Shown here in pieces: positions 42,441-59,475 of a stretch of 64,000 bases of DNA. Both the position numbers and the translations under genes were made by a program. The notes below the pieces were generated by a model, which was not told where the DNA came from, did no database searches, and saw only the letters and a program-made list of their open reading frames with translations. This DNA comes from Actinoalloteichus hymeniacidonis (lineage in GTDB: Bacteria > Actinomycetota > Actinomycetes > Mycobacteriales > Pseudonocardiaceae): the NCBI RefSeq assembly GCF_014203365.1, contig NZ_JACHIS010000001.1:3100001-3164000 (forward strand). The letters run 5' to 3'. Every line of letters begins with the position of its first letter. Position 1 is the first letter of the stretch.

Positions 42441-44084
42441 TCAGCCGCGAGACCGAAGTGCTCTCTTGTCGACCTTGCCGAGCGGAGTCAGCGGCAGCTG
42501 TTCGATCGCGACCACTCGGTCCGGTGCCTTGTACGCCGCGAGGCCGTGCTGCCGAAGGAAGGCCGCGAGTTCTCGCGCAGTCGGCGCGTCGCGGGCACAG
42601 ACGACGAAGGCCACGGAACGCTCGCCGAGTTCGTCGTCATCCTCGGCGACCACGGCCGCCGACACGATCCCGGGATACCCGAGCAGACACTCTTCGACCT
42701 CCGTGGCATCGATCTTCTCTCCGCCCCGGTTGATCTGGTCCTTGACCCTCCCCACGACGGTCAGATGTCCGCTCGGTAGGCGCTTGACGAGGTCTCCCGT
42801 TCGATAGAAGCCGTTCTCGGTGAAGTGGGTGACGGCGTGCTCCGGCGACCGGTAGTACCCGCGCAAGGTGTAGGGGCCGCGTGTCAGCAGCTCGCCGGTC
42901 TCGCCGTCGGGAAGCGGATTCCCCTGATCGTCTACGACGAGAACCTCGTCCTCCGGAGAGATCGGCCGCCCCTGCGTGGAGCAGACGATGTCCTCGGGGT
43001 CATCGAGGGCGGTGAGATTGAGCAGGCCTTCGGCCATGCCGAACACCTGTTGGAGGCGGCATCCCAAGGTGGGCCCGATGCCACGTGCGATGTCGTCGGG
43101 GAGCCGGGCCGCTCCCACCTGGAGTACCCGAAGACTCGATAGGTCGGGCGTGCTCTCCGTGTACTCCTTCAGCCAGTACGGCACGAGCGGAGGGGTGACC
43201 GCCGTGATCGTGACCCGTTCTCGCTCGATCAGGGTGAAGACGGTGTCGGGACTCGGGTTCGGGGCCAGGACGACGGTCCCACCGGCTTGGAGGGTTCCGA
43301 GGATGCCGGGACAGCTCATGGTGAAGTTGAAGGCGATCGGCAGCACGGCGAGATAGACGCTGTCCGAGGTCAGCTCGGAGATGTTCGCGGCGGCCCGAGC
43401 GTTGTAGGCGTAGTCCTGATGGGTCCTCGGAATGAGTTTGGGCGTGCCCGTCGTACCGCCGGAGAGAAGGAGTAGCGCCAAGTCCTCGGGCGCCGGACGT
43501 GCGAGTTCTGCGATGGCGGGTGCCGTGTCGTCGTGGAGGGCGTCGAACGGGACGAAGTCCGGGCGAGCGCCCACGTCGCCCACGACGATCACCTGACCCA
43601 GGGACGGGTGCTCCGCCTTCATCTCGGCGGCGAGTTCGCGGTGGTCGAATCGTGCGTGGCGGGCGGGGATCACGTAGGCGACTGCTTCGGTGAGCCGAAT
43701 CAGGTGAGAGATCTCGTGTCTGCGATGACCGGGCATGGCGTGGACGGGGACGGCCCCGAGTCGCTGCAACGCGAACCAGCCGAGGACGAACTCCGCGATA
43801 TTGGGCAGCTGCAGGACGACCCGGTCGCCTTGGCGCAATCCGAGTCGGCTCAGCGATCGAGCGAGGATGTCCACCTCGGACTCCAGTTCGCGGTAGGTCC
43901 ATCGACGATCACCGTCGACCAGCGCCACCGCCGCCGGATGCCGGGTCGCCCCCTCCCTCGGAAGTTCGCCGAGGACCTCGTCGCGCCAGTGACCGAGCGA
44001 CCGGTAATGCCGTGCGAACCGCTCGGGCCACTGTGGACGGTCCGCCTCCGTTGGTCGCAGCACCGTGGATGAGATCTTCGCCAT
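42441..44084 (-). CDS. Salicylate-AMP ligase (aryl acid activating, DhbE/YbtE/PchD-like)
   Basis: 547 residues, AGGAG before the ATG. ANL-superfamily enzyme: LSGGTTGTPKLIPRTH is the P-loop, FGMAEGLLNLT the A5 region, YRTGDLV and GRVKDQINRGGEKI the hinge and C-domain, and LGKVDKRAL the final catalytic lysine. It adenylates an aryl acid and loads it on the aryl carrier domain of the NRPS. In the pocket, FNFTMSCPG has Cys where 2,3-dihydroxybenzoate enzymes have Ser, the salicylate-type residue; the salicylate synthase in the locus agrees. The usual His of the AHNF motif is Phe here. Divergent from NRPS 1 across a Zur-like site. Confidence 0.93.
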   Translation of the reverse strand: MAKISSTVLRPTEADRPQWPERFARHYRSLGHWRDEVLGELPREGATRHPAAVALVDGDRRWTYRELESEVDILARSLSRLGLRQGDRVVLQLPNIAEFVLGWFALQRLGAVPVHAMPGHRRHEISHLIRLTEAVAYVIPARHARFDHRELAAEMKAEHPSLGQVIVVGDVGARPDFVPFDALHDDTAPAIAELARPAPEDLALLLLSGGTTGTPKLIPRTHQDYAYNARAAANISELTSDSVYLAVLPIAFNFTMSCPGILGTLQAGGTVVLAPNPSPDTVFTLIERERVTITAVTPPLVPYWLKEYTESTPDLSSLRVLQVGAARLPDDIARGIGPTLGCRLQQVFGMAEGLLNLTALDDPEDIVCSTQGRPISPEDEVLVVDDQGNPLPDGETGELLTRGPYTLRGYYRSPEHAVTHFTENGFYRTGDLVKRLPSGHLTVVGRVKDQINRGGEKIDATEVEECLLGYPGIVSAAVVAEDDDELGERSVAFVVCARDAPTARELAAFLRQHGLAAYKAPDRVVAIEQLPLTPLGKVDKRALRSRG

Positions 44085-44292: not shown

Positions 44293-47200
44293 GTGACTCA
44301 GTCATCCCGATCGGCCCAGGCGTCGCTGACCGAGGCGGACGTCCGGGTCTCCGCATCGACGACCATCGGCGTGCCTGCCGCGGACATCGGACTCGACGTC
44401 GACCTGTTCGAGCTGGGCTTGGACTCGCTCGGTCTCATCCGGCTCACGGCCGACTGGCGCAGGCGCGGACTGAAGGTGAGCTTCGAAGACCTCGCCGAGA
44501 CCGCGACCCTGCGCGATTGGCTGCGCATCCTCACGGCCGCAGCAGCGAAGAACACCGACACGGCATCCGGCACCTCGGCGGCCCGCAAGAGCTCGACGCC
44601 GGCAGAAGACCGCCACGTCGCAGCAGACGCCTTTCCGCTGGGCGCCATGCAGCACGCCTACTGGATCGGTCGCCAGGACGGCCAACCGCTCGGGGGAGTG
44701 GGCGCGCACTTCTACGCCGAGATGGACGGCGCGGGAGTGGACCCGCAGCGACTCGGTCGAGCCGTCGCGGCCCTCCGCCGCAGGCACGAGATGTTGCGGA
44801 TCGCGGTGCAGGACGACGGATGGCAACGTGTCCTGCCTCCGGACGACGGCGATCCGGTGGTGATCCACGATCTGACGGCGGCCTCCCCGCATGAGGTGTC
44901 CACGGCGCTGGCTCGGCTTCGTCACCGCTACACCCATCGACGCATGGACGTCGAGAATGGCGAGGTACTCGAGGTCGCCCTCACCCTGCTTCCCGACGGT
45001 GCGACCCGACTGCACATCGACCTCGACATGGTCGCCGCCGACGCCGCCAGCATGCGCGTCCTGCTCGGCGACCTCCGCACGCTCTATGCCGAACCGGAAG
45101 CGCCACTGCCGCAGCTCCACGACTCCTACCAGGACTATCTCCGGCGGAGTCAGGGCGACCGCGCCGCCGACCGCGCCGAGTCACGAGACTGGTGGCAAGG
45201 AAGGTTGGACACACTCGGGGCGGCACCCGATCTCCCCACCGTCGTCGATCCGCTGAGCCGCGAATCCTCCTCGCCCCGCTACCACCGGACGATCCGCCTG
45301 CATCACCAGCTGACATCCGAACGCACTCGATTGCTTCTCCATCGCGCCCGCCGCCACGGACTGACACCGACCGCCGTGTTGGCGACCGCCTTCGCCGAGA
45401 CCGTGGGCGCGTGGAGCGCCGAACCCCGGTTCCTGCTCAATCTCCCACTGTTCCACCGCGACCTGAGCACTCCCGAGGTCGAACTACTCGTGGGGGACTT
45501 CAGCAGTTCGATCCTGCTCGATGTCGATCTCACCGGCGAACGGTTCTTCGTCGACGTAGCGCACGACATCACCGCCCGACTTCGCTCCGCCATCGCGCAC
45601 GGCTCCTATCCCGGTGTCGAGGTCCTGCGGGACCTCTCCCGGGTCGCAGGCGGGACCCCGGTGTTGGCCCCGGTGGTCTATACCAGTGCGCTGGGGCTCG
45701 GGGAGGTCTACGACCGCGCGGTACGCGACACCTTCGGTGAACCCGTCTGGATCATCTCGCAGGGCCCGCAGGTCTGGCTCGATGCGCAGGTCACCGAATT
45801 CGACGGCGGGATCCTGCTGAACTGGGACGTCAGGGAGGACCTGTTCGAGCCGGGCGTCCCCGCAGCGGCCTTCGCCGCGTATCGAGACCTCGTCGAGAAG
45901 CTCCTCGACGACGAGCAGGCCTGGTGGCGTTCGACGGCCCCGCAGCTTCCCGCAGAGCAGCTGCGGGTTCGTCAACAGGTCAACGCCACGGACGCCCCCC
46001 TCGTCGGGGATCGGCTGCATGAGGGTTTTCACCGTGCCGCCGATCGTCACCCGGAACACATCGCCCTGGTGGCCGCCGGTGAAACGGTCACCTATGGAGA
46101 GCTGGCGCGACGCGCAGGCCAGGTAACCGCACTGCTGGCGTCCCGAGGAGTCCGTCCGGGGGACTCGGTTGCGGTCAGTCTGGGTCGCGGGGTAGGTCAG
46201 GTAGCCGCCGTGCTGGGCGTGCTCGGCGCGGGAGCGACCTACGTCCCGATCGGGGTGGAACAACCCGTCGAACGAGCGCACCGGGTCGCGGAGGCAGCCC
46301 GGGTCGTCGCGGTACTCACCGAGCTCGATGACATCGGGCGCCATGGCGGGACCGCCGAGACCGCGATCCCCCTTGTACTGCAGGCTGATGCGACCGGACT
46401 CGACCCCGTGCCGCCGATCCTCGACCAACCCGTCGACTCGATCGCCTACGTCATCTTCACCTCCGGCTCGACCGGATCGCCCAAAGGCGTCGAGGTCTCA
46501 CATGGTGCCGCGATGAACACGATCGCGGCGCTCAATGCGCGTTTCGACGTACGACAGAACGATCGTGGCCTGGCCTTGGCGGAGCTGGATTTCGACATGT
46601 CGGTGTACGACCTCTTCGCACCGCTGTCGGCGGGCGCATCGGTCGTCCTGATCGACGAGGACGCGCGCCGCGACGCCACCTATTGGATCCGGCTGGTCCA
46701 AGAACTCGGTGTCACACTGATCAACTGCGTGCCCGCGCTGCTGGACATGCTGCTGACGGCCGCCGAAGCCGATCCCGACGGGCTGGGCGATTCACTGCGA
46801 CTGGTGCTGCTCGGCGGTGACTGGGTGGGGCTGGATCAACCCGGCAGGCTACGCGCGTTGCGTCCTGAAGCGAGGTTCGTCGCCCTCGGCGGGATGACCG
46901 AGGCCGCGATCCACTCCACGATCATGGAGGTGGCGGACGTAGATCCGGCGTGGACGTCGATTCCCTGGGGCGTGCCGCTGCCCAACGTGCGGGCCCGCGT
47001 CGCCGACCACCGAGGCCGGGACTGCCCGGACTGGGTACCGGGGGAGCTGTGGATCAGCGGTGCGGGCCTGGCTGCGGGCTACCGAGGAGACCCCGAGCGC
47101 ACCGAGCAGAAATTCGTCGAACACGAGGGCCGCCGCTGGTATCGCACCGGTGACCGGGCACGCTACCGCGCCGACGGCCTACTGGAATTCCTCGGGCGAA

Positions 47201-50200
47201 CCGATCACCAGATCAAATTCAGAGGCCATCGCATCGAACTGGGAGAGATCGAGGCCGCCGCCGTCGAACGAGCCGACATCGCCTCCTGCGTTGCGCTGGT
47301 CACCGGGCAACCTCGGCGGCTAGCCCTGGTGGCGGCGCGCCAGCGGGACCACGCACCGTCGGAGGCCGAGCTTCACGACACCCTGAGCCGAGCCCTGCCC
47401 CCGTACATGGTCCCCAGTCAGGTGGTGATCGTCGACGAGCTTCCGCTGACCCGTAATGGAAAGCCCGACCGACGACGAGCCGCCGAGCTGGCCACCATGG
47501 CAACAGCACCGACCGACTCGCGGCACGAACCACCGACGGGGTGGGCGGAGGTGGTGCTCGCACAGGCATGGACCGAGGTTCTCGGCGTGGCCGACATCGG
47601 ACGCGACGACGATTTCTTCGTTCTCGGCGGTGACTCGCTGCTGGCGACGCGCGTGATCGTCGCCTTACGCCGCCGTGGAGTGGGCGGCGCGCGGGTCGGC
47701 AGATTGTTCGCCGAGCCTCGCCTGGCGGATTTCGCCACGACCCTCTCCCGGACCGAGTCTCGAGAGCAGGGGATACGCCACGGCGACCTCGCACGCAGAC
47801 ACGAGCCCTTTCCCGCCACGGACGTGCAACGCGCCTTCTGGATCGGCCGGGACGACCGGTTGCCGCTCGGCGGGGTCGGCACGTACCACTACAGCGAGTT
47901 CGACGACGTCGACGTCGATCTCGAACGGATGCAGCGCGCTTGGCGTGTCTTGGTCGGTCGGCACGAGATGCTGCGCGCGGTCTTCGACGAGGACGGGCGG
48001 CAACGCATTCTCGCCGAGGTGCCCGACTTCACCATCCCGGTCACCGAGGTGACGGACCCCCACGCCGCCGAGCCGGTGTTGGCTCGGCTACGAGCGGAAT
48101 CGTCCCATCGCAGGCTGGATGTGACCCGCTGGCCGTTGTTCGACCTCCGCGCCGTGCGCTACCCGAAGGACGGTCGGATGCGGACCCGGCTCGCGATCGG
48201 ACTGGACTACCTGGTGCTCGATGGGGCGTCGATCATCCTGCTCTACGGCGAACTCGACCGGCTCTACGCGTCTCCCGACACCCCACTGCCGCCTATCGAG
48301 GTTTCCTTTCGGGACTACGTGCTCCAGGTGGTTCCGGAGAAGAAGGTGGTCGAGCGGGCCCAGGAGTACTGGCTGCGAAGACTCGACGAACTCCCGCCCG
48401 CCCCCGCGCTGCCGCTGGCGGCGGATCCCGCCACGATCGACCGGCCATGGTTCACCCGTCGGAGCCGTCCCCTGCCTGCCGCGCGATGGTCGGCCCTGCG
48501 GGAGAAGGCGCGCAGCCACGGGTTGACGCCCTCCTCGGTACTGCTGGCCTGCTACGTCGAGGTCCTCGCTGCCTGGAGTGAAACTCCGGGTGTCACCGTG
48601 AACCTGACCCTGTTCAACCGGCTGCCGGTCCACCCGCACATCGATCGTGTTGTCGGGGACTTCACCTCCGTGTCCTTGATCGGCCATCGTCCCCGGCCGA
48701 ACGAGACCTGGGCGGAGACCGCCCATCGGGTGCAGCGCGTGATGAGCGAAGACCTCGACCATCGTGAGGCATCGGCTATCTGGCTGCTCCAGGAACTGGC
48801 CAGGCGCACCGGCACCGTCGACGCGGCCATGCCGGTGGTGTTCAGCAGCTCGGTCGGGGTCGGCGACCGGGACGTCAAGGACCTCTCCGACGCCTTCCCG
48901 GCCAAGCTGTGGGGCATCTCGCAGACACCGCAGGTGCTGCTGGACAACCAGATCACCGAGGCCGACGGTGGGGTGCTGGTCAGTTGGGACGCCGTCGAGG
49001 AACTGTTCCGCGATGGTGTCTTGGACGCCATGTTCGAGTCGTACGTCCGCATGCTGGATTGGCTCGTCGATCACGACTGGACCGGCTCGCCCCCCATCGT
49101 GCCTGCGAGTGAAACGGACCGGGGCGGCTCCGTTCCCGCCGCCTCGCGGGGTGCCGAGGCCGATGGCCTCATGCACGAGGATCTCCTGCGTCGATGCGGC
49201 GAGGATCCCGAGCGTGTCGCTCTGTTGTGGCCGACCGGCTCGATGACCTACGGCCGGTTGCTCGAACGGGTAGGTCGGGTCGCAGCCGGGTTGGTCGATC
49301 GAGGTGTTCGTCCAGGTGACACCGTCGGCATCGCACTCGGCGCGGGACCGGAACAGGTTGTCGCCGCCATCGCGACCTTGTACGCGGGCGCTGTCTACCT
49401 GGCTGTCGATCCGAGCAGAGCTTCGAGAGAGCAGACCCGGTGGTATCACGAGGCCGATGTCGTTCTCGTGATCGCGACGGAGGCGGCCCGCCCCGGCCGA
49501 GACGATGGCATACCCCAGATCGGTATGTCGGCACTCGAAAGCCAGTCTGCGTTGCCCACCGCGGTGCCGCGAGATCGCACGGATACCGCCTATCACGTCG
49601 TCTCGTCGTCACCAGACGGCGAACCGAGTCTGCTCTCCGTCAGTCATCTGACCGCGGGCAGCACCATCCGCGATCTGCGGACGCGCTTCGCCATCGACCA
49701 GGACGATCGTGTCCTCGCCGTCGCAGGCCTGGAAACCGATCTCTCGGTCTTCGACGTCTTCGGTCTGCTCGGTGCGGGCGGGGCACTCATCGTGCCCGAC
49801 GATCAGGAACGAAATGACCCGGCCGCGTTGGCCCGCCTCGCAGGCCGACATCGCGCGACCGTGTGGAACGGGACCCCATCGCAGCTCGATCTGTTACTGG
49901 CCGAGATCGAGTCGGGCACCGCCGAACCGACGTCGTTGAGACAACTCCGGTTGGCGGTGGTCTCGCAGGAACGGGTGAGTCGTGACCTGCCACACCGACT
50001 GCGGCGGCAGGCCGACCCACACCTGCGGTTCGTGGCGCTCGGAGCCGGTGCGTTCGGATTGCTCGCCCGTGTAGCGGAGTTCGACGCGGCAACGGAGAGC
50101 CAGAGCTCGGTCTCCGATGGCGCGCCGCTGGCCGGGCGCAGGCTCCGCGTGGTCGACGCCGATGGCCGTGATCGCCCCGACTGGGTCGTCGGGGAACTCT

Positions 50201-50928
50201 GGACCGGCGGGCTCATCGCCTGCGCGGGCGACCGGCAGGCAGCGTCGACGAGCACGGACCTGTTCGTCGATGTGGATGGACGACGATGGCACCGCACGGG
50301 AACCCGAGCGCGTCACCTGCCGGATGGCGGTCTTGAGTTCCTCGGTGACGCGTCGCGCAGGGTCGACGTCGGAGGGCGCGGCGTCGAGCTGGACGAAGTC
50401 GAGGCTGCGGCGGAATCGCATCCACAGATCGTGCGCGCGGTGGTCGCCAATCCCGCAGCTCAGAGCGACGGCAGGCCGCAGCTCATCGCACTGATTCGCG
50501 GCCCGCGGCCGGACGACCTCGGCCGTCACCTAGCCGATCGGCTCCCTCCTCATGCGACGCCCACCAGGATCACCTACGTCGACGCCTTGCCCCTCACCTC
50601 GGCGGGCACCGTCGACCACGACGCGCTGTCGGACATCGTCTCCGCCGACGACGGACTCGCCGGTCTGCCGGCCGGAGAGATCGAAACCCGCATCGCCGAG
50701 ATCTGGTCAGAGATCCTGGGCGCCGGCGTCACGGACCGGTACATCAGCTTCTTCAGCGCGGGCGGGGACAGCCTGTCGGCGTTGCGCCTGGTCGCAGCGG
50801 TCAGCACGGCCTTCGGCGTGGACCTCTCGGTCCGAGCATTCCTCACCGCCTCCACCCTCTCCGACCTGACGCTGCAGGTCGAGAGCGCGGGCGGAACCTC
50901 TGTCCCGGAAGAAAGCGGAGTCATATGA
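44293..50928 (+). CDS. NRPS 1: aryl carrier-Cy-A-PCP-Cy-A(degenerate)-PCP
   Basis: 2211 residues, GTG start with GAAGGAGG 12 nt upstream. Order: aryl carrier (Ser45 in LGLDSLG); cyclisation domain Cy1 with DMVAADAAS; adenylation A1 (FTSGSTGSPKG, TGDRARYR, NGKPDR); carrier Ser1115; Cy2 with DYLVLDGAS; a second A region from about residue 1620 whose P-loop is VVSSSPDGEPS and whose final motif is PLTSAGTVD, lacking the catalytic lysine; carrier Ser2160 in GGDSL. A1 pocket residues read about D-M-Y-N-L-G-L-I-H-K, near but not equal to the Cys code. Role: salicylate plus two heterocyclised residues. The second carrier must be charged by another A domain, as in Yersinia HMWP2. Confidence 0.94.
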   Translation: MTQSSRSAQASLTEADVRVSASTTIGVPAADIGLDVDLFELGLDSLGLIRLTADWRRRGLKVSFEDLAETATLRDWLRILTAAAAKNTDTASGTSAARKSSTPAEDRHVAADAFPLGAMQHAYWIGRQDGQPLGGVGAHFYAEMDGAGVDPQRLGRAVAALRRRHEMLRIAVQDDGWQRVLPPDDGDPVVIHDLTAASPHEVSTALARLRHRYTHRRMDVENGEVLEVALTLLPDGATRLHIDLDMVAADAASMRVLLGDLRTLYAEPEAPLPQLHDSYQDYLRRSQGDRAADRAESRDWWQGRLDTLGAAPDLPTVVDPLSRESSSPRYHRTIRLHHQLTSERTRLLLHRARRHGLTPTAVLATAFAETVGAWSAEPRFLLNLPLFHRDLSTPEVELLVGDFSSSILLDVDLTGERFFVDVAHDITARLRSAIAHGSYPGVEVLRDLSRVAGGTPVLAPVVYTSALGLGEVYDRAVRDTFGEPVWIISQGPQVWLDAQVTEFDGGILLNWDVREDLFEPGVPAAAFAAYRDLVEKLLDDEQAWWRSTAPQLPAEQLRVRQQVNATDAPLVGDRLHEGFHRAADRHPEHIALVAAGETVTYGELARRAGQVTALLASRGVRPGDSVAVSLGRGVGQVAAVLGVLGAGATYVPIGVEQPVERAHRVAEAARVVAVLTELDDIGRHGGTAETAIPLVLQADATGLDPVPPILDQPVDSIAYVIFTSGSTGSPKGVEVSHGAAMNTIAALNARFDVRQNDRGLALAELDFDMSVYDLFAPLSAGASVVLIDEDARRDATYWIRLVQELGVTLINCVPALLDMLLTAAEADPDGLGDSLRLVLLGGDWVGLDQPGRLRALRPEARFVALGGMTEAAIHSTIMEVADVDPAWTSIPWGVPLPNVRARVADHRGRDCPDWVPGELWISGAGLAAGYRGDPERTEQKFVEHEGRRWYRTGDRARYRADGLLEFLGRTDHQIKFRGHRIELGEIEAAAVERADIASCVALVTGQPRRLALVAARQRDHAPSEAELHDTLSRALPPYMVPSQVVIVDELPLTRNGKPDRRRAAELATMATAPTDSRHEPPTGWAEVVLAQAWTEVLGVADIGRDDDFFVLGGDSLLATRVIVALRRRGVGGARVGRLFAEPRLADFATTLSRTESREQGIRHGDLARRHEPFPATDVQRAFWIGRDDRLPLGGVGTYHYSEFDDVDVDLERMQRAWRVLVGRHEMLRAVFDEDGRQRILAEVPDFTIPVTEVTDPHAAEPVLARLRAESSHRRLDVTRWPLFDLRAVRYPKDGRMRTRLAIGLDYLVLDGASIILLYGELDRLYASPDTPLPPIEVSFRDYVLQVVPEKKVVERAQEYWLRRLDELPPAPALPLAADPATIDRPWFTRRSRPLPAARWSALREKARSHGLTPSSVLLACYVEVLAAWSETPGVTVNLTLFNRLPVHPHIDRVVGDFTSVSLIGHRPRPNETWAETAHRVQRVMSEDLDHREASAIWLLQELARRTGTVDAAMPVVFSSSVGVGDRDVKDLSDAFPAKLWGISQTPQVLLDNQITEADGGVLVSWDAVEELFRDGVLDAMFESYVRMLDWLVDHDWTGSPPIVPASETDRGGSVPAASRGAEADGLMHEDLLRRCGEDPERVALLWPTGSMTYGRLLERVGRVAAGLVDRGVRPGDTVGIALGAGPEQVVAAIATLYAGAVYLAVDPSRASREQTRWYHEADVVLVIATEAARPGRDDGIPQIGMSALESQSALPTAVPRDRTDTAYHVVSSSPDGEPSLLSVSHLTAGSTIRDLRTRFAIDQDDRVLAVAGLETDLSVFDVFGLLGAGGALIVPDDQERNDPAALARLAGRHRATVWNGTPSQLDLLLAEIESGTAEPTSLRQLRLAVVSQERVSRDLPHRLRRQADPHLRFVALGAGAFGLLARVAEFDAATESQSSVSDGAPLAGRRLRVVDADGRDRPDWVVGELWTGGLIACAGDRQAASTSTDLFVDVDGRRWHRTGTRARHLPDGGLEFLGDASRRVDVGGRGVELDEVEAAAESHPQIVRAVVANPAAQSDGRPQLIALIRGPRPDDLGRHLADRLPPHATPTRITYVDALPLTSAGTVDHDALSDIVSADDGLAGLPAGEIETRIAEIWSEILGAGVTDRYISFFSAGGDSLSALRLVAAVSTAFGVDLSVRAFLTASTLSDLTLQVESAGGTSVPEESGVI

Positions 50929-53900
50929 ACGTCCGTCAGATCGTGGCGACTCTGGAGAAGGAAGGCATCCGACTTTGGGAGGAGGACGGGGCGCTTCGAT
51001 TCCGCGCCCCGCAGGGCACGCTGACCGAGGAACGGCGGGCCCTGTTGCGGACCAACCGTGACGCGGTGCTGGCCCACCTGATCGACCGACGGGAAGCGAC
51101 CCAGCTGGTTCCGGACTTGGCCGCCGGGAACGAACCTTTCCCGCTGACCGATATCCAAGCGGCCTACCTCGTGGGACGAGGCAGCGCCTACGGTTACGGC
51201 GGCGTGGCCTGCCACGTCTACGTCGAGCTCTCCTATCCGGCCGACACGGACCCCGACCGAGTGAACTCGGCCTGGTGGGAGGTGGTGCGTAGACACGACA
51301 TGCTCCGGGCGGTCGTGCACCCTGATGGTTTCCAAGAGGTGCTGTCGGAGATGGCGGAGCCTCCGGTGCCGACCGCCGACCTGCGCGGTTCGACGGCCGC
51401 CGAGGTGGACCGGGGCATCGCCCGGATTCGGAGTGAACTCGCCGCCCGAGTACCTCGTACGGACCGACCGCCGTTGTTCGTGCTGCGAATGACCCGCTCG
51501 GACGACGAACTCGTCCTGCACCTGTCGATCGATCAGCTCATCGTCGACTACGCCAGCCTGATGATCGTCCTCGCCGAGATGGAGGACGTCTACCACGGCC
51601 GCCCGCTCGCTCCGCTGACAATCGGATTCCGCGACTACGTGCTGGCCCGGCGCAAGCAGACGCTCACCGGCGATTACGACCGACATCGCGACTACTGGCT
51701 GCGGCGACTCGCCGAGCTGCCCGGCCCTCCCGACCTGCCGGTCGCCACCGACCCCGACGGGGCACGCAGCTTCCGCCGGTATGAGGTCGTGCTGGGGGAG
51801 CACCAACGGAAGGCCTTCGAAGCCAATGCCACGGCGAACGGAACCACTGCATCCGCGGCGGCGCTGACCGCCTACGCCGAGGTCGTCGGCCGGTGGAGCC
51901 GCAATCCCGAGTTCATGCTCAACGTTCCCACCTTCACTCGCCTGCCACTGCACACCGAGGTCGACCAACTGGTCGGCGATTTCACCGACGTGGAACTGCT
52001 CGCCGTGGATCTGCGACCGAGGCAGACCTTCGCCGAACGCTCCAGAACGCTGGGCGCGAACCTACTGGAGGACCTGTCGCATTCGCTGTTCACCGGGAGC
52101 CGGGTCCTCGCGGAACTGAACCGCGCACGCGGTGCCGACACGGTACTGATGCCGGTGGTGTTCACCAGCACCCTCGGTTCCGCTACGACCCGGCAGCCAA
52201 CGGGTCGAATCCGGCACGCACGGACGCAGACACCACAGGTCTGGCTCGACTGCCAGGTGATGGACCGCGCTGGTGAACTGGCACTGAGCTGGGACGTGCG
52301 CGAGGGGGTGCTCGCGGAGAACACCGCCGCGCATCTCTTCGACGCCTTCGTCGAGTTGATATCCACCCTGGCCGCCGATGACACCGCGTGGCGCACACCC
52401 GCCGCGATCGAACTTCCAGCCCAGACGCGTGCCGTTCGCGAACAGCCCCCCGTCGCCGTCGTGCCTCCACCGAGGGCGTTGTTGCAGGACGCCGTGCTGG
52501 CTACGGCTGCTCGACTGCCGGACGAGATCGCCGTGGTCGATCGAGGGCGCCGGATGACCTATCGGGAGCTGATCCGACAGGCGACGGGCGTGGCCAGGAC
52601 ACTCGCGGCCGCAGGCGTCGAACCGGGCGACCTCGTCGTGATCACCATGGAAAAGGGCTGGGAACAGGTCGCCGGGGTCCTCGGGACGCTGCTCGCGGGC
52701 GCCGCCTACCTGCCGGTGGACACCACACAGCCGCAGCGGCGTCGCGAGGCGATCCTGAACGACGCCAAGGCGAAGGCGGTCCTTACCCAGTCCTGGTTGA
52801 TGGGTGACTGTGCCTGGCCAGAGCACGTCACGTCCCTTCCCGTGGACGGCATTCCCGCGACGGACGGCCCGCCGCCCGAGATCCACGTGGATGTCGACGC
52901 ACTGGCATACGTGATCTACACGTCGGGTTCGACGGGAGCTCCCAAGGGCGTGATGATCAGCCATGCGGCTGCGGTGAACACCGTGGCGGACATCAACCGG
53001 CGGTTCGACGTCCAGGAGGGTGACCGGGTATTCGCGTTGGCGCAACTCGGTTTCGATCTGTCCGTCTACGACGTGTTCGGTCCGCTGTCGGTGGGCGCGA
53101 CGATCGTGTTGCCCGATCCAGCGCGACGTGGGGATCCCTCCAGTTGGGTCGAGATCCTGCGCACGGACGGCGTCACGATCTGGAACTCGGTGCCGGGGCA
53201 GTTGCAGATGGTGACCGACTATCTCCGAACGGACGATCCGCCACTGCCGTCGTTGCGACTGGCCATGTTGTCGGGCGATTGGATTCCCCTGACCTTGCCG
53301 GAGGCGATATGGAGATGGGCGCCCGATCTGAAGATCCACAGTCTCGGGGGTGCCACGGAGGCATCCATCTGGTCGATCCATCATCCCGTCGACCGAGTCG
53401 ACCCCGCCTGGCGCAGCGTGCCCTACGGCAAGCCACTGTCCAACCAAGGCTTTCATGTCCTCGATCACGCGATGCGGCCGTGCCCCGACTTCGTCGTCGG
53501 TGAGCTCTACATCAGCGGCGTCGGACTGGCGAAGGGCTATCTGGGCGATGCGCAGCGCACCGAGTCCCGCTTCATACCCCATCCCGACACCGGAGAACGG
53601 CTCTACCGGACCGGTGACCTCGGGCGGTTCCACCCGGACGGCGTGATCGAGTTCCTCGGGCGCGAGGACCAGCAGGTCAAGATCCGGGGCTATCGGATCG
53701 AACTCGGCGAGGTCCAGGCGGCACTGGACTCCTTGCCCTCGGTCGGCTCCAGTGCCGTGGTCGTCGCAGGAGGTCGGGGCGACGCGGGCACCACCTCACC
53801 CCGGGTGCTGACCGCCTTCGTCGAGCCCGCGCACCGTGCGACGCCCCTGCCGATCCCGGATGGGCTGCCCGCTGTGTTGGCCGAGGCTATGGACGGCGCG

Positions 53901-56402
53901 GTACAGGAAGTGGATCTGACCGCGCTGACGTCGTTCCGCACGGCGATGGGCGAGGCCGCACTGTCCTCGATCGCCGACGCACTGACCGCGGCCTTCGTCG
54001 GGGATGCGACTCGAACCGCCGAGCAGGTCTGTTCGATGCTCGATGTCGCCCCCGCCCAGCACAGACTGGTTCGACGTTGGCTGCGTGGTCTCGTCGGAGC
54101 AGGCAGGTTGAGTCGGGACGCGGCGGGCGCCTATCACGACCTGGTGGTCCACGGACCGCAGCACACCGCACAAGCCTGGTCGCAGGCCGCCGAACTCGAG
54201 AAGTCCGCAGGATGGAGCGCGGAACTCTTCGCCGCAGTCCGGCACTGCGCCGAGGATCTACCTCGGCTGATCAGCGGGCGGACAGACCCGATGAGCCTGA
54301 TGTCGGCCGCCGCCGGTCCCGACGCGCTGACCGCGGCGTACACGGGAAACACCGCAGCAAGAACCCTGCACGAGGTTCTGACGGCCTTCGTCGCCGAGAT
54401 CGCCGGCAACCACCGGGCCGACGGACCGCTGCGCATCATGGAGGTCGGTCTGCGTGGTGGTGGCGCCGCCGCGCGCCTGGTGCCCGCACTCGCCGGGCAG
54501 GACCTCGAATACCTGGCCACGGACGTCTCGGCGCACAACCGGGCGGCGGCTGCCGAGCTGCACTCCGAGGACGCCAGGGTGCGTTGCGCGGCCTTCGACC
54601 CTGCCACAGACCCTCGTGCTCAAGGGTTTCCACCGAACTCCGTGGACGTGCTCGTCTGTATCGGGGTGCTCGACAATCTTCCCGATGTCGGTGCTGCGTT
54701 GGCCAATCTACGTGCGCTCGTAACACCTGGCGGCTGGTTGGTGCTCATGCAGAACATCGACGACGACGATCACGCGTTGCGTGTCTCGACCGAGCTGCTC
54801 CCCGAACACGCGGGCCCCTTCTCCGACGTGCGTGCGGCGGAGGAACAGTCCTTCCTGCGCGCCGCGCAATGGACCGAACTGCTCGGTGCCCAGGGTGACC
54901 GGGTGATCGCCGAGCTTCCCGCCTCAGCGACCACGGCGGCGGTCTTCGGACAGCGGCTCTTCGTGGTGCAGCCCAAGCCCGACCGGGAACCCGTCTCCGT
55001 GGTCGAGCTGACTCGGCGAGCGGAGGAGCTGCTTCCCGAGTACTCGGTTCCCAGCCGATGGGAGGTGCTGGACGCCCTGCCACTGACGGTGAACGGAAAA
55101 CTCGACCGGACCCGACTGGAGAACTGGGCCGAAGCCTCGGACCAGCAGTCCGCCGTCGCCGAATCCGCCGCGCCGCAGGACGAACTGGAGCGTGCACTCG
55201 CCGCGCTGTGGGCCGAACTACTGGAACGTGATCAGGTGGGTCGCGATGACGACCTGTTCGCCCTGGGCGGGGACTCGCTGCTGGTGGCCCGGATCGTCGG
55301 GCGCCTTCGGGATGGCGTGACCACCGAGGACGGCCGGGAGACCCTGGAGTGGGACCTCGAATGGGAGGTGGTCCTTCGGCACCTGCTGCGCAGGCCGACG
55401 GTTGCGGGACTGGCCGCCTACCTGCGTGGCGTGGCAGAGGAAGGTGCGGCCGACGGGAATCGCGAGGTCTCCCCGATCGTCGTGCTGGAGGAGGGCACCG
55501 AAGCGGTCACCGTGCTGGTACACGCGGGCACCGGCATCCTCTTGCCGTACCGGCCCCTGATCACGGAGTTCCGCACACAGTCCTCCGGGCGAAACGGCCT
55601 GCTCGGATTGGAGATCCCGGAGCTGGACGACTTCCTCAACGCCGATCCGAACGGACTGATCGATCGACTCTCCGCCCGGTATGCGCAGGCGCTGCTCGAT
55701 GCCGGTCATACCCGCTTCGACATCGTCGGTTACTGCGTGGGTGGTGTCATCGCCACCGAGGTGGCGCGGGCCCTGTCGGAGGCGGGCGCCGAAGTGCGGA
55801 GTCTCACCGTCATCAGCAGTCACAGTCCGACGTTCCGCCTGGACGACGAGCTTCTGTCGGAATACTCGTTCGGTCTGATGATGGGCATCGATCTGGCGGC
55901 GGTCGGCTTTCCCGAGGATCAAGCCCGGGTCGGGGCGGCGGTCGGCGCCGTACTCGAGCAGTCGCCCGAGGCTGTGCTCGACGGTGCCATCGCCGATCTC
56001 GAAGGGGAGTACGCGGATATCGCGGCGGCGTTCACGGCCATGGAGGCGTTGCCGAGGATGCGACGGGTCGCCTTGATGTGCGAGGCACTCCCGCCAGAGC
56101 TGGCGGGCACCTATCAGCCCGAGGGCCTGCTGCGCGCGCTGCGCACCTACCAGCAGAGCACCTTCGCGCTGAGCAGGCATCACGCCGAGCCGTACGCCGG
56201 AGACATCACCTTCCTTCGGCACAACGGCTCCTACCCGTTCCCCGGCAGCGCGGAGACCATCACCGACCACTGGGCGAAGATCTGCCTCGGCGAACTGACC
56301 AGTCGGGACATCCCCGGCCAGCACTTCACCTGTATGACCGGCGACCACGTCTCGACGGTCTTCGGGCACCTGAGTGAACTCATCGAAGGAACCACATCGT
56401 GA
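50925..56402 (+). CDS. NRPS 2: docking-Cy-A(Cys)-embedded MT-like-PCP-TE
   Basis: 1825 residues, ATG overlapping the NRPS 1 stop by 4 bp. Residues 1-50 look like a TubC-type N-terminal docking domain (IRLWEEDGALRFRAPQG). Then Cy3 with DQLIVDYAS; an A domain with YTSGSTGAPKGV and pocket residues about D-L-Y-N-M-S-L-I-W-K, close to the known cysteine code; a roughly 400-residue insert (about 960-1370) before the final A motif LTVNGKLDR, containing a methyltransferase-like fold with EVGLRGGG as SAM loop; carrier Ser1451; and a thioesterase with GYCVGG, so Cys1604 replaces the usual nucleophilic Ser. Adds and cyclises a third residue and releases the product. Confidence 0.94.
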   Translation: MNVRQIVATLEKEGIRLWEEDGALRFRAPQGTLTEERRALLRTNRDAVLAHLIDRREATQLVPDLAAGNEPFPLTDIQAAYLVGRGSAYGYGGVACHVYVELSYPADTDPDRVNSAWWEVVRRHDMLRAVVHPDGFQEVLSEMAEPPVPTADLRGSTAAEVDRGIARIRSELAARVPRTDRPPLFVLRMTRSDDELVLHLSIDQLIVDYASLMIVLAEMEDVYHGRPLAPLTIGFRDYVLARRKQTLTGDYDRHRDYWLRRLAELPGPPDLPVATDPDGARSFRRYEVVLGEHQRKAFEANATANGTTASAAALTAYAEVVGRWSRNPEFMLNVPTFTRLPLHTEVDQLVGDFTDVELLAVDLRPRQTFAERSRTLGANLLEDLSHSLFTGSRVLAELNRARGADTVLMPVVFTSTLGSATTRQPTGRIRHARTQTPQVWLDCQVMDRAGELALSWDVREGVLAENTAAHLFDAFVELISTLAADDTAWRTPAAIELPAQTRAVREQPPVAVVPPPRALLQDAVLATAARLPDEIAVVDRGRRMTYRELIRQATGVARTLAAAGVEPGDLVVITMEKGWEQVAGVLGTLLAGAAYLPVDTTQPQRRREAILNDAKAKAVLTQSWLMGDCAWPEHVTSLPVDGIPATDGPPPEIHVDVDALAYVIYTSGSTGAPKGVMISHAAAVNTVADINRRFDVQEGDRVFALAQLGFDLSVYDVFGPLSVGATIVLPDPARRGDPSSWVEILRTDGVTIWNSVPGQLQMVTDYLRTDDPPLPSLRLAMLSGDWIPLTLPEAIWRWAPDLKIHSLGGATEASIWSIHHPVDRVDPAWRSVPYGKPLSNQGFHVLDHAMRPCPDFVVGELYISGVGLAKGYLGDAQRTESRFIPHPDTGERLYRTGDLGRFHPDGVIEFLGREDQQVKIRGYRIELGEVQAALDSLPSVGSSAVVVAGGRGDAGTTSPRVLTAFVEPAHRATPLPIPDGLPAVLAEAMDGAVQEVDLTALTSFRTAMGEAALSSIADALTAAFVGDATRTAEQVCSMLDVAPAQHRLVRRWLRGLVGAGRLSRDAAGAYHDLVVHGPQHTAQAWSQAAELEKSAGWSAELFAAVRHCAEDLPRLISGRTDPMSLMSAAAGPDALTAAYTGNTAARTLHEVLTAFVAEIAGNHRADGPLRIMEVGLRGGGAAARLVPALAGQDLEYLATDVSAHNRAAAAELHSEDARVRCAAFDPATDPRAQGFPPNSVDVLVCIGVLDNLPDVGAALANLRALVTPGGWLVLMQNIDDDDHALRVSTELLPEHAGPFSDVRAAEEQSFLRAAQWTELLGAQGDRVIAELPASATTAAVFGQRLFVVQPKPDREPVSVVELTRRAEELLPEYSVPSRWEVLDALPLTVNGKLDRTRLENWAEASDQQSAVAESAAPQDELERALAALWAELLERDQVGRDDDLFALGGDSLLVARIVGRLRDGVTTEDGRETLEWDLEWEVVLRHLLRRPTVAGLAAYLRGVAEEGAADGNREVSPIVVLEEGTEAVTVLVHAGTGILLPYRPLITEFRTQSSGRNGLLGLEIPELDDFLNADPNGLIDRLSARYAQALLDAGHTRFDIVGYCVGGVIATEVARALSEAGAEVRSLTVISSHSPTFRLDDELLSEYSFGLMMGIDLAAVGFPEDQARVGAAVGAVLEQSPEAVLDGAIADLEGEYADIAAAFTAMEALPRMRRVALMCEALPPELAGTYQPEGLLRALRTYQQSTFALSRHHAEPYAGDITFLRHNGSYPFPGSAETITDHWAKICLGELTSRDIPGQHFTCMTGDHVSTVFGHLSELIEGTTS

Positions 56403-57532
56403 TCGCAGTACTCGGTGCATCCGGCGCAGTGGGGAGGCATGTCGTCGCCGCACTCATCGAAGCCGGCGTCGGTCCACTGCGCCTCGGCGCCCGCAGACCT
56501 ACCGCCATCATGGTCGGAAAGACCGCCCCCGGCACGCAACTCATGGCCGTCGACGTCACCGATCCCACAGCACTGGCCGAATTCTGCGCGGGGGCCGATC
56601 TGGTCGTCAACTGTGCAGGTCCCGGTTATCGATTGGCGGAGACGGCCGCCAAGGCCGCATTACACGCCGGAGCCGACTACGTCGATGCACTCGGCGACGA
56701 AGTCGCCATCGCACCGGCCGAGGCACGGGCCGCCGACCGAACAGTGGTCCTGTCGGCCGGGACAGTCCCCGGGCTCTCCGTGCTGGTGCCGCGCCTCCTT
56801 GCCGAGTCCGCTGTCGCCGCGCAGTCGAAGGCGACCCGGCTCGTGGCCTACGCGGGTGGGTTGGAGATGGTCACCACGACGGTCGCCGCCGACATCCTGT
56901 CCTCGTTGAACGTCGGCGGTTCCCACGGTGAGCCGTTCGGATATCCCCTGGCGGCCTGGCGACACGGCCGTCGAGAGGCTCGGGTGCTGCGTTCCGACGA
57001 GAACGCCGAGGTGCCGTTCTACCCGACCCGGGTAGCGGTGCAGCCCCTGCTCACCGCTGAGATCGAACGGCTCGCTGCGAGCCTCGGGCTGACCGAGGCC
57101 GATTGGTACAACGTCTACCCGGGCCAACAGGTTCGAGCCTTGTTCACCACGCTACCGACCCTGCCGACGTCTACTAGCCAGCAGCGTTCGGAGATCGTCT
57201 CCAGGATCATCCGGGCGGCTGCGATCGACCTGGCGGGGGTGGAGCCCTATTACCGGATGGTCTTCACCCTGTCCGGGCCCGACTGGTCTCGCACCGCAGT
57301 GGTTCGCACCGAGGACAGCTATCGGCTCACCGCCGAAGTACTGGTGATCGCCGCACGCGCGGTTCTGGACGGGCGCATCGAGACAGGTATCCACCTGGCT
57401 GGTGATGTACTGCGGCCGGGGGAGGTCGTCGCCGAGATCGAGCGACGCGGAGCCGCCGGATACGCCGTGATCCAGAGTTCCGTCGACCCCGGATCACCGA
57501 TGGACGGCGGTTTCGAGGACGGTGAACTGTGA
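56399..57532 (+). CDS. Saccharopine-dehydrogenase-like NAD(P) protein
   Basis: 377 residues, GTG start overlapping the NRPS 2 stop by 4 bp. The N-terminal Rossmann loop is VLGASGAVGRHVVAAL, then VVNCAGPG and DYVDALGDE, the pattern of the saccharopine dehydrogenase NADP-binding family; the rest (YAGGLEM, PGQQVRALFTTLPTL) is not motif-rich. Sits between NRPS 2 and the imine reductase with overlaps on both sides, so it is made with them. It may reduce an imine or epimerise an intermediate; no function can be assigned. Confidence 0.82.
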   Translation: MIAVLGASGAVGRHVVAALIEAGVGPLRLGARRPTAIMVGKTAPGTQLMAVDVTDPTALAEFCAGADLVVNCAGPGYRLAETAAKAALHAGADYVDALGDEVAIAPAEARAADRTVVLSAGTVPGLSVLVPRLLAESAVAAQSKATRLVAYAGGLEMVTTTVAADILSSLNVGGSHGEPFGYPLAAWRHGRREARVLRSDENAEVPFYPTRVAVQPLLTAEIERLAASLGLTEADWYNVYPGQQVRALFTTLPTLPTSTSQQRSEIVSRIIRAAAIDLAGVEPYYRMVFTLSGPDWSRTAVVRTEDSYRLTAEVLVIAARAVLDGRIETGIHLAGDVLRPGEVVAEIERRGAAGYAVIQSSVDPGSPMDGGFEDGEL

Positions 57533-59475
57533 GCACACCATCGGCAGGTCGCCTGCGCACCGTGGTGTGCGGTACGAATTTCGGTCGTTTCTACATCGAT
57601 GCCGTGCGGGCGCATCCCGGCTTCGACCTCGCGGGCATCCTCACGACCGGCAGCCGGTACTCCCAAGAGATGGCCGCGCGCCTCGGTGTGCCGTGCTACA
57701 CGAGCGTCGACGAACTTCCAGCCGACGTGGACGCCGCCTGCGTCGTTGTTCCGTCCGCAGTAATGGGCGGTGGCGGTTCGGAACTGGGGCGGGCCCTGCT
57801 GGAACGGGGCGTGCATGTGCTACAGGAACACCCCGTGCACCCGGACGAGCTCGCGGCCTCGCTGCGGTCGGCCCGAGCGAACAAGCGCCAGTACCGGGTC
57901 AATACCCACTACCCGCACGTGGAGCCGGTACGACGATTCATCGAGGCGGCGGGGGAGCTTCGGCGTAGACAGCAGGTGCTCTTCGTCGATGCCGCTTCCC
58001 CGGTTCATGTCCTGGCGCCGATGGTGGACATCCTGGCTCGGGCGCTGGGCGGCGTGCGGCCCTGGCGGTTGGGGGATCCTGCGTCGGTTGCCGACGAGGT
58101 CCGTGCGGCCGCAGGCGGCGTGGTGCCGGTGCACAGCCTGCACGGCGTCATCGCGGGAATACCGCTCACCCTGCGCGTCCAGAACCAACTGCATCCCGGC
58201 GATCGGGACAATCACGCGTTGTTCTGGCATCGCATCACCATCGGCACCCAGGGCGGGGTATTGACCCTTGCCGACACACACGGGCCGGTGCTCTGGAATC
58301 CGCGACTGCATTCGCCCCGGGATGCCGGGCACCGCCTGATTTTCGAGGCCGGGCCGGGCGCGGAAGCCCTGCGGTTGCCGACGAGTTCCGTCCTCGGCGA
58401 TCCGGACGAGATTCAGCCGTCCTTCGAGGAGGTCTTCTCCCGACTGTGGCCCTCGGCGGTGGCTGCCGCTCTCACCTCCTTCGCCGAGGCGATCGCGGCG
58501 GAGTCCGATCCGTTGCGGACCGCCCAGCACGATCTGGCGGTGTTCGGTATCTGGCGGGACCTGATGGCCCGACTCGGTCCGCCCGAGTTGATTCGACCGC
58601 CGACACCGACGCCGCTCGCCGTCGAGGATCTCCGTGTCGTCGGAGCGGGGACACAGGGTCCGATCACAACCCGACCGCGCGGCACCACGGCGGAGAACGG
58701 AACACCGGAGCCGGACGGGGCACCTGGCTCGGGCTATTCGGAATCCGCCGAGTTCTTCGACCTGGGCGCCCGCGACCACACTTCGCGTACCGGTCCGGCG
58801 GTGGTGGCGGCCCTCGGCGTCATCGACCGGCACGCGGGTCCACTGTTCGACATCGGGGCGGGCACCGGCTTGGTCACCCGTCAGATCGCCAGAGCCCTTC
58901 CCGGCTGCCAACTGATCGCGACCGAGCCTGCTGCGGGGATGCGTGCGGTGCTCACCAGCCGGATCGCCGATGATCCCGAGCTGGCCTCTCGAGTGACGGT
59001 ACTTCCGCACGCCGCACACGAACTCGTGTTGCCGGAGCGGATCAGCGGGGCGGTCGCCTGCGGGGTGCTCGGTCACCTGGACGCGGCAGCCCGGCGGGCT
59101 CTGCTGCGGAGCATCGCGGCTCGTCTTGCTCCCGGTGCCCCGCTGGTCGTCGAGCTTATGGGGTTCCACACGCCGATCTCGATGCCGCGGACTCGGCTTC
59201 GGCACGCCATGCTGGGCGGTCTGCGGTACGAGTGGTGGATGGCCGGTGAGCCTTCGGGAGCGGATCGGATGCGCCTCGATACCACGTGGCGGGTGTTCGA
59301 TGGGGAGGAGCTGATCCGAGAATCCCACGATCATTACCACTGGTATCCGGTGGATCTGCCGAGGATCGCTGAGGAGAGCGGATTGATTCTAGAGTCGGTG
59401 CCATCGCCGCATGACAAGGCCGTTCCGCACCTGGGCCTGTTGCGAGGTGCGGAACAACCCTGCGTCACCACGTGA
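57529..59475 (+). CDS. Thiazolinyl-imine reductase fused to a SAM methyltransferase
   Basis: 648 residues, GTG start overlapping the previous stop by 4 bp. Residues 1-365 are a Gfo/Idh/MocA-type reductase like Irp3/PchG: VVCGTNFGRFYIDAVRAHP, then GILTTGSRYSQEMAARLGVP and LQEHPVHPDEL. This enzyme class uses NADPH to reduce a carrier-bound thiazoline to thiazolidine. A Pro/Gly/Thr-rich linker (about 375-400) leads to a class I methyltransferase with FDIGAGTGLVTRQIA, IATEP and VVELMGF. The methyltransferase half is clearly paralogous to the free-standing gene at 61739. Its stop lies 11 bp inside the convergent P450 gene. Confidence 0.9.
   Translation: MSTPSAGRLRTVVCGTNFGRFYIDAVRAHPGFDLAGILTTGSRYSQEMAARLGVPCYTSVDELPADVDAACVVVPSAVMGGGGSELGRALLERGVHVLQEHPVHPDELAASLRSARANKRQYRVNTHYPHVEPVRRFIEAAGELRRRQQVLFVDAASPVHVLAPMVDILARALGGVRPWRLGDPASVADEVRAAAGGVVPVHSLHGVIAGIPLTLRVQNQLHPGDRDNHALFWHRITIGTQGGVLTLADTHGPVLWNPRLHSPRDAGHRLIFEAGPGAEALRLPTSSVLGDPDEIQPSFEEVFSRLWPSAVAAALTSFAEAIAAESDPLRTAQHDLAVFGIWRDLMARLGPPELIRPPTPTPLAVEDLRVVGAGTQGPITTRPRGTTAENGTPEPDGAPGSGYSESAEFFDLGARDHTSRTGPAVVAALGVIDRHAGPLFDIGAGTGLVTRQIARALPGCQLIATEPAAGMRAVLTSRIADDPELASRVTVLPHAAHELVLPERISGAVACGVLGHLDAAARRALLRSIAARLAPGAPLVVELMGFHTPISMPRTRLRHAMLGGLRYEWWMAGEPSGADRMRLDTTWRVFDGEELIRESHDHYHWYPVDLPRIAEESGLILESVPSPHDKAVPHLGLLRGAEQPCVTT

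What the first reader, a model, noticed from the sequence alone, without database searches (positions are those of the whole stretch)
49170..50640. A decaying adenylation domain inside NRPS 1
The second A region keeps its length and fold landmarks but the P-loop (FTSGSTGxPKG) is VVSSSPDGEPS and the catalytic lysine motif is SAGTVD. The following carrier Ser2160 is intact. This looks like a step between a full Cy-A-PCP module and the Cy-PCP module of Yersinia HMWP2, where one A domain loads several carriers.
Basis: partly seen in the sequence, partly recalled or inferred. Interest (0 to 1): 0.72.

Follow-up and report, generated by a model that had tools for sequence, protein, structure and literature searches.

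The report
Dead adenylation domain in coelibactin-type NRPS
In one actinomycete, a siderophore assembly enzyme carries a full-length but apparently dead amino-acid-activating domain beside an intact carrier, so a neighbouring domain, most likely the cysteine-activating one on the partner enzyme, probably has to load that carrier.

Summary
NRPS 1 (44293-50928, 2211 aa) is CP-Cy-A-PCP-Cy-A-PCP, the coelibactin/sorangibactin layout. Its second A domain (49153-50643) keeps length and ANL fold, but motifs A3, A5, A7, A8 and A10 have lost their key residues. Of 224 A-domain rows covered at A3 it alone lacks the P-loop Lys. Only this domain is fast-evolving: relative-rate counts 129 v 38 against its sister (p about 1e-12); six other domains show no significant difference. 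Cy2 and PCP2 active sites (Ser2160) are intact, so the module is probably still used.

The HMWP2 analogy is only partly supported. A1 has a Ser/Thr-type pocket (DMYNLGLIH) like NbtF/MbtB-type domains. Intact A2 orthologues and the A of NRPS 2 have the Cys pocket. I therefore favour NRPS 2 charging PCP2 with Cys in trans, as after A-domain mutation in photoxenobactin synthetase, over A1 loading it in cis. The loss followed the split from relatives with intact A2, so this is no ancestor of HMWP2. With no second copy of the dead form found, "decaying" and "kept as scaffold" cannot be separated. Dead A domains complemented by others are a known kind; this is a new variant.

The parts
44293..50928 (+). 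NRPS 1, 2211 aa: CP-Cy1-A1-PCP1-Cy2-A2(dead)-PCP2
44335..44538 (+). N-terminal (aryl) carrier, GLDSL, Ser45
44608..45972 (+). Cy1, motif DMVAADAAS
45997..47496 (+). A1, intact motifs; pocket DMYNLGLIH (Ser/Thr type, inferred)
47539..47748 (+). PCP1, GGDSL, Ser1115
47809..49122 (+). Cy2, motif DYLVLDGAS; 101 of 111 conserved columns kept
49153..50643 (+). A2, degenerate adenylation domain; pocket remnant DLFNVSLLL
49591..49647 (+). A3 (P-loop) region YHVVSSSPDGEPSLLSVSH
50029..50058 (+). A5 region FVALGAGAFG, Thr-Glu lost
50287..50313 (+). A7 region WHRTGTRAR, Asp lost
50344..50403 (+). A8 hinge GDASRRVDVGGRGVELDEVE, Arg and Lys lost
50587..50616 (+). A10 LPLTSAGTVD, catalytic Lys lost
50677..50883 (+). 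PCP2, GGDSL, Ser2160 (codon at 50770)
50925..56402 (+). NRPS 2, 1825 aa: TubC_N docking-Cy3-A3(MT)-PCP3-TE with Cys nucleophile (GYCVGG)
52470..53774 (+). A3 (part before the MT insert), intact motifs A3-A8, pocket DLYNMSLIW (Cys type); proposed trans-loader of PCP2
42441..44084 (-). stand-alone AMP ligase, aryl-acid type inferred (the only other A-type protein found in the window)
56399..57532 (+). saccharopine-dehydrogenase-like oxidoreductase (SrbE-like, inferred)
   Evidence: PMC10127202
57529..59475 (+). Irp3-like thiazolinyl imine reductase fused to a methyltransferase
59465..60691 (-). cytochrome P450 (SrbH/CYP105N1-like role inferred)
60926..61717 (+). type II thioesterase
62580..63902 (-). 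chorismate-binding enzyme, salicylate synthase candidate

Best explanation
A2 is a Cys-type adenylation domain of a coelibactin-type synthetase that lost catalysis after the split from its sister lineage but was not deleted. Module 2 still works: Cy2 condenses and cyclises, and PCP2 carries the residue. PCP2 is charged with cysteine by the intact Cys-type A domain of NRPS 2, across the subunit border where NRPS 2 must dock with PCP2 anyway; the dead domain remains as a structural spacer between Cy2 and PCP2. Shown by computation: loss of the ATP/catalytic motifs, acceleration confined to A2, intact Cy2 and PCP2 active-site motifs, pocket types. Inferred: loss of activity, continued use of the module, who loads PCP2, the spacer role.
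For: Motif loss: the one row of 224 covered at A3 without the P-loop Lys. Terminal branch of A2 1.85 against 0.40 in sister L124; the five other domains tested are 0.28-1.35 times the sister. Relative-rate counts: A2 129 v 38, 126 v 24, 124 v 40 with three outgroups, p at most 3.3e-11; none of the six other domains is below p=0.05. Cy2 keeps 101/111 conserved columns and its DxxxxDxxS; PCP2 keeps Ser2160. A2 pockets are Cys-like (S/W) in 25 of 27 synthetases (window SL, L020 AW). A1 here is of the G/H type found in 31 of 31 single Cy-A rows from Nocardia- and Mycobacterium-group loci, whose likely families build oxazolines from Thr/Ser. In the window only A3 is Cys-type; in the own-genome stretches read one other intact Cys-type A was seen, 2.1 Mb away. 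Precedents: killing PxbG A2 by point mutation left products, read as PxbF A1 supplementing in trans (PMC9396620, section 6); HMWP2 A loads PCP3 in trans (PMC9547227 passages).
Against: No biochemistry. Pocket reading can fail: antiSMASH called SrbC A1 Cys although Ser was incorporated. PCP2 shows no drift toward PCP3 (29% to PCP1 and 29% to PCP3 of the window), as retargeting might predict. PCP2 keeps 10 of 13 conserved columns, below the lowest orthologue (0.85), so it may be slightly eroded. A3 also has to serve its own PCP3. The residual-constraint signal is weak: 48/65 replaced hydrophobic columns stay hydrophobic (33.1 expected), but A1 shows 31/37 and Cy2 32/35.
Confidence: 0.52

Rival explanations
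1. A1 loads both PCP1 and PCP2 in cis, as HMWP2 does, so position 2 becomes a Ser/Thr residue (bis-oxazoline) or A1 is relaxed enough to load Cys.
For: A1 is in the same chain; HMWP2 A loads PCP1 and PCP2 in cis. In relatives L130/L135/L142 the A-less module follows a GH-type A1 and its carrier is a PCP1 copy (60-63% to PCP1, 34-38% to PCP2), which A1 would be expected to know.
Against: A1 pocket is Ser/Thr-type while lost A2 and A3 are Cys-type; window PCP2 is not PCP1-like (29%), so the L130 logic does not carry over.
Confidence: 0.27
2. Another A domain or stand-alone A-PCP elsewhere in the genome loads PCP2 in trans, as in albicidin or ramoplanin.
For: Known solution for inactive A domains (PMC8949500 section 4.1); a second Cys-type A exists at G000:C1:5273811-5275397.
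Against: No stand-alone A-PCP found in the window besides the AMP ligase; the other Cys-type A belongs to a different NRPS 2.1 Mb away. The own-genome domain scan covered only the 11 stretches fetched around the 29 matches, so absence elsewhere is not shown.
Confidence: 0.1
3. Module 2 is skipped or the pathway is dying; A2 is the first part to go.
For: A2 conserved columns are lost widely, not only at catalytic sites (71 of 181); PCP2 keeps 10 of 13, below the lowest orthologue; no second copy of the dead form was found.
Against: Cy2, PCP2 and the other domains show no significant acceleration, Cy2 and carrier active sites intact, no stop or frameshift, and tailoring genes are present.
Confidence: 0.09
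4. A2 has kept some unusual activity despite the motif losses.
For: Fold kept (pLDDT 87.8, TM 0.83 to PchE); A4 Asp kept.
Against: P-loop, A5 Thr-Glu, A7 Asp, A8 hinge residues and A10 Lys are gone. The model used an alignment of mostly active homologues, so fold similarity says nothing on activity.
Confidence: 0.02

Closest known systems
Coelibactin synthetase of Streptomyces (SCO7681-7683) and sorangibactin SrbC/SrbD
   Same: T-C/A/T-C/A(cys)/T of 2213-2250 aa plus C/A(cys)/MT/T-TE of 1842-1857 aa (PMC5932044 passages); SrbC 7 and SrbD 5 domains, Cys-nucleophile TE, P450, saccharopine-DH-like gene (PMC10127202 passages)
   Different: A2 is annotated as a Cys domain in both; its motifs are lost here. 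I did not have their sequences to align
HMWP2 of yersiniabactin (and Pxb/Irp homologues)
   Same: ArCP-Cy-A-PCP-Cy-PCP in which one A loads several carriers in cis and in trans
   Different: No A region between Cy2 and PCP2; its A is Cys-specific; separate branch for the homologues examined, L046, L049, L077
BlmIV/BlmIII of bleomycin
   Same: A dead A domain next to an intact carrier in a thiazole-forming line, with aminoacylation in cis and in trans (title of Du et al. 2003 seen in reference lists; that BlmIII holds the dead A is recalled; a non-functional A is marked in a figure legend of PMC3777966)
   Different: There A* starts a separate A*-PCP-Ox protein (recalled); here it sits inside Cy2-A2-PCP2 and has no Ox domain
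Albicidin, ramoplanin, enduracidin inactive A domains
   Same: Inactive A complemented in trans (PMC8949500 section 4.1)
   Different: Complemented by stand-alone A-T proteins; none found in this window
PxbG A2 D3287A K3583A mutant of Xenorhabdus szentirmaii
   Same: Cy-A-T module with a dead A still yields products, read as supplementation in trans by a Cys A of the partner subunit (PMC9396620 section 6)
   Different: Laboratory mutation; product 1 maintained, titres of 2-6 lower; here a natural state

Membership tests
Active NRPS adenylation domain (ANL) | ANL fold | tested here: met
   Pfam AMP-binding 159.6 bits; AF2 model, best PDB match PchE 7en1 TMq 0.83
Active NRPS adenylation domain (ANL) | P-loop, A5 Thr-Glu, A7 Asp, A8 Arg/Lys, A10 Lys | tested here: not met
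   10 of 12 chosen ATP/catalytic positions replaced; list recalled and chosen post hoc
Active NRPS adenylation domain (ANL) | amino-acid-dependent ATP-PPi exchange | not testable with these tools
   needs the excised domain
Coelibactin-type synthetase | seven-domain NRPS 1 plus Cy-A(MT)-PCP-TE NRPS 2 with Cys TE | tested here: met
Coelibactin-type synthetase | salicylate synthase, aryl-AMP ligase, P450, saccharopine-DH-like gene | tested here: met
   Pfam matches, (family level only)
Coelibactin-type synthetase | second A active on Cys | tested here: not met
   motifs lost; activity itself not tested
HMWP2-type synthetase | Cy-PCP module without an A region | tested here: not met
   497-residue A region present
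HMWP2-type synthetase | single Cys-specific A loading several carriers | tested here: inconclusive
   A1 pocket GH type, HMWP2-type loci SW type; loading not testable
BlmIII-type subunit | dead A followed by PCP and Ox on a separate protein | tested here: not met
   dead A met, but in-chain after Cy2 and no Ox
BlmIII-type subunit | carrier charged in trans | not testable with these tools
   biochemistry needed
Albicidin-type complementation | stand-alone A-T protein in the cluster | tested here: not met
   only the AMP ligase found in the window

The most novel reading that the evidence does not exclude
The dead A2 has become a non-catalytic platform, in the way the X domain is a dead condensation domain that recruits P450s (PMC8949500 passages): it holds Cy2 and PCP2 in register and lets the A domain of the downstream subunit reach back over the subunit border to charge the last carrier of the upstream one, so one Cys A serves two carriers on two proteins.
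Probability: 0.14. Interest if true: 0.7.

Novelty: new variant of a known kind. Interest (0 to 1): 0.45.

Why it matters
It is a natural counterpart of a laboratory A-domain kill inside a Cy-A-PCP module, with intact sister synthetases to compare. It makes a general question testable: what replaces a lost A domain, and does a dead one still serve the module's architecture? It also warns that domain callers count this A as present (Pfam and TIGR01733 each give two A stretches in NRPS 1), so product predictions that read three working A domains here would be wrong about who supplies residue 2.

Tried and rejected
Rejected: sequencing error or frameshift (in frame, motif lengths kept but for one Gly, one-contig genome). 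Rejected: a mutational hot spot as the whole cause. Fourfold-site differences of A2 to L124 (88/144=0.61) are near A1 (99/184=0.54) and Cy2 (85/152=0.56), but A2 is higher against L126 and L137 (0.64, 0.66 v 0.49-0.54), so this is not clean. Corrected on the way: my note called the A-less module of L130/L135/L142 a clean A loss; one search shows a PCP1-Cy2 copy. Looked for PCP2 retargeting toward PCP1 or PCP3: none seen. Region-by-region heterogeneity of column loss is not significant (p=0.13). Led nowhere: watasemycin paper not held. No second copy of the dead form: genus 1 of 3 genomes, the own one; genome contigs 74 loci, best 39%; family 50 of 297 genomes at 1e-85, own included, best other 43%.

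Limits: (127 of 297 genomes, own included) cut its list; I fetched 60 further regions chosen from the listed places. In one search rows were keyed by locus, so where two or more ORFs of one locus held an A domain only the last was printed (L159, L166, L167, L168, L185, L187). Four of these were re-read; L166 and L168 were not. L200 has no A row. The output was cut; counts over all 225 rows come. The 29 G/H rows had been picked by motif strings; one search repeats this by domain layout and length (31 of 31). The 12 ATP/catalytic positions and the pocket positions are recalled A-domain knowledge; the 12 were chosen after seeing the sequence, so the Fisher value (2/12 v 108/169 kept, p=0.0017) is post hoc. 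L073 and L020 were left out of the conserved-column and branch counts (24 of 26 orthologues used; CP0 not in the branch test).
Full report
What is there. The open frame 44293-50928 encodes 2211 aa with the domain order CP-Cy1-A1-PCP1-Cy2-A2-PCP2; the next frame, 50925-56402, encodes TubC_N-Cy3-A3(MT)-PCP3-TE. This matches coelibactin synthetases in Streptomyces, annotated T-C/A/T-C/A(cys)/T of 2213-2250 aa plus C/A(cys)/MT/T-TE of 1842-1857 aa (PMC5932044, passages), and SrbC/SrbD of sorangibactin with seven and five domains and a Cys-nucleophile thioesterase (PMC10127202, passages). NRPS 2 here has GYCVGG in its thioesterase. Around it lie a stand-alone AMP ligase, a saccharopine-dehydrogenase-like protein, an Irp3-like reductase fused to a methyltransferase, a P450, a type II thioesterase and a chorismate-binding enzyme, so the pathway looks complete at the family level.

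A2 is catalytically dead by sequence. P-loop, A5 Thr-Glu, A7 Asp, A8 Arg and Lys and A10 Lys are replaced, while the A4 Asp motif stays. In 225 A-domain rows from 94 loci and the window, 224 are covered at A3 and this is the only one without the P-loop Lys. The 26 orthologous A2 rows hold A3 Lys, A5 Thr-Glu, A8 Arg and Lys in 26 of 26 and A10 Lys in 24 of 26 (L073, L020 not aligned there); the A7 test in that script looked at the wrong letter, but the printed rows show the Asp in all 26. A2 keeps 110 of 181 columns conserved in 24 orthologues; A1 keeps 144 of 162, Cy2 101 of 111, PCP2 10 of 13. A1 (0.89) is near the lowest orthologue (0.88) and PCP2 (0.77) is below it (0.85), so these are not spotless. 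Length (497) lies inside the orthologue range. An AlphaFold2 model (pLDDT 87.8) is nearest to PchE in the PDB (7en1, TM 0.83 by query); the model leaned on 43 mostly active homologues, so it shows only that the chain can still be threaded on the fold.

The acceleration is confined to A2. Identity of A2 to 26 orthologues has median 39.1%, where four orthologues against the rest have 58.7-61.8%; the other window domains are in or near the usual range (A1 52.7 v 55.2-57.1, Cy2 50.9 v 49.1-54.0). On a topology built from Cy1+A1+PCP1+Cy2, the A2 branch of the window is 1.85 against 0.40 for its sister L124; ratios for five other domains are 0.28-1.35. Relative-rate counts for A2 are 129 v 38, 126 v 24 and 124 v 40 with outgroups L126, L136 and L137; none of the six other domains reaches p=0.05 (lowest: Cy2 0.052, in the opposite direction). 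L124 and the other orthologues have intact A2, so the loss is later than that split.

Decay or scaffold. At columns of 95% or more conservation, ATP positions set aside, the window differs from L124 at 57 of 152 where L124 and L126 differ at 8 of 152; at the least conserved columns the three pairs differ at 0.76-0.78. So conserved sites are being lost, but are not yet as free as variable ones. Of 65 replaced hydrophobic columns 48 stay hydrophobic against 33.1 expected from random single-base change; A1, Cy2 and Cy1 give 31/37, 32/35 and 24/25. Hydrophobic columns kept: 127 of 144. This fits relaxed but not absent constraint; some of it may predate the inactivation. No second sequence of the dead form was found, so I cannot separate the two.

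Who loads PCP2. The nine pocket positions (mapping recalled) read DMYNLGLIH in A1, DLYNMSLIW in A3, DLFNVSLLL in dead A2. DLYNLSLIW is listed as L-Cys in a table of PMC3777966. Over 27 seven-domain synthetases, A1 is G/H type in 19 and S/W type in 8; A2 is S/W in 25, with the window (SL) and L020 (AW) the exceptions. The G/H type also appears in 31 of 31 single Cy-A rows of 1000-1250 aa from Nocardia- and Mycobacterium-group loci. NbtF uses Thr or Ser (PMC7413640, passages) and MbtB forms the methyloxazoline (PMC10745776, passages); that these rows are NbtF/MbtB is inferred from size, layout and host. In mupirochelin the first A is predicted Thr and the second Cys (PMC10080011, passages). So A1 is probably a Ser/Thr domain and the lost A2 a Cys domain; in the window only A3 looks able to give Cys. 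PCP2 is the last domain of NRPS 1 and must meet Cy3 of NRPS 2, so A3 is close (inference). Precedent: the PxbG A2 double mutant kept product 1 and lower titres of 2-6, read by its authors as partial supplementation by PxbF A1 in trans (PMC9396620, section 6); HMWP2's A loads PCP1 and PCP2 in cis and PCP3 in trans (PMC9547227, passages). Against: PCP2 is no nearer to PCP3 than to PCP1 (29% each), and pocket reading of this family has failed before (SrbC A1).

Is it an HMWP2 precursor? In a tree of 98 Cy domains, Cy2 of three HMWP2-type loci (L046 and L049 Xenorhabdus, L077 Vibrio) and the window Cy2 both fall in the Cy2 clade but on different branches (FastTree, support not examined). Three relatives (L130, L135, L142) have CP-Cy-A-CP-Cy-CP-Cy-A-CP; the carrier of the A-less module is 60-63% identical to PCP1 of the same protein and 34-38% to PCP2, and its Cy is 52-53% identical to the next Cy, which reads as a tandem copy of PCP1-Cy2 rather than loss of an A. 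The window therefore shows another way to a module without its own activation: death without deletion.

Other dead A domains. In 60 more regions chosen from Cy2 matches in 297 genomes of the family (127 with a match at 1e-60, own included), four (L159, L167, L185, L187) hold another dead A. Wider stretches show a line ending in Cy-A(Cys)-PCP-Cy followed by a separate A*-PCP frame with a C-terminal extension, which is the BlmIV/BlmIII layout as I recall it; I did not run Pfam on the extension. Their A* are 50-70% identical to each other, the second active A 63-82%, so a dead A seems able to persist in this family.

Novelty. Inactive A domains complemented by others are known (PMC8949500 section 4.1). 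I found no report of one in a coelibactin-type line in ten paper searches of an open-licence library; of the 13 papers holding coelibactin and adenylation I read passages of three (PMC10127202, PMC10080011, PMC5932044). I rate it a new variant of a known kind.

Noticed in passing
L221-L224 (G023:C1, G052:C23, G312:C42, G048:C9): Four genomes of the family carry a BlmIV/BlmIII-like pair: Cy-A(Cys)-PCP-Cy, then a separate dead A*-PCP frame with a C-terminal extension; A* is conserved at 50-70% identity between them.
   Followed up: partly
L130, L135, L142: Nine-domain relatives in which an A-less Cy-PCP module looks like a tandem copy of PCP1-Cy2.
   Followed up: yes
L225, L226, L230: Frames of 2715-2770 aa with CP-Cy-CP-Cy-CP, two A-less cyclisation modules in a row; loader unknown.
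   Followed up: no
window 57529-59475 (+): Irp3-like thiazolinyl imine reductase fused in frame to a methyltransferase, 648 aa; not checked in relatives.
   Followed up: no
G000:C1:2970118-2971626 (L007, L213): An NRPS-type A domain (pocket DLYNLGFVW) elsewhere in the same genome; the match has one in-frame TGA inside. Described only.
   Followed up: no
L125, L126 (A1 domains): A8 hinge reads GRxDHQVQVHG, with Gln in place of the usual Lys, in otherwise intact A1 domains of two closely related loci.
   Followed up: no
window 4296-14714 (+): A 3472-aa open frame that gave no Cy, A or CP hit; not examined.
   Followed up: no
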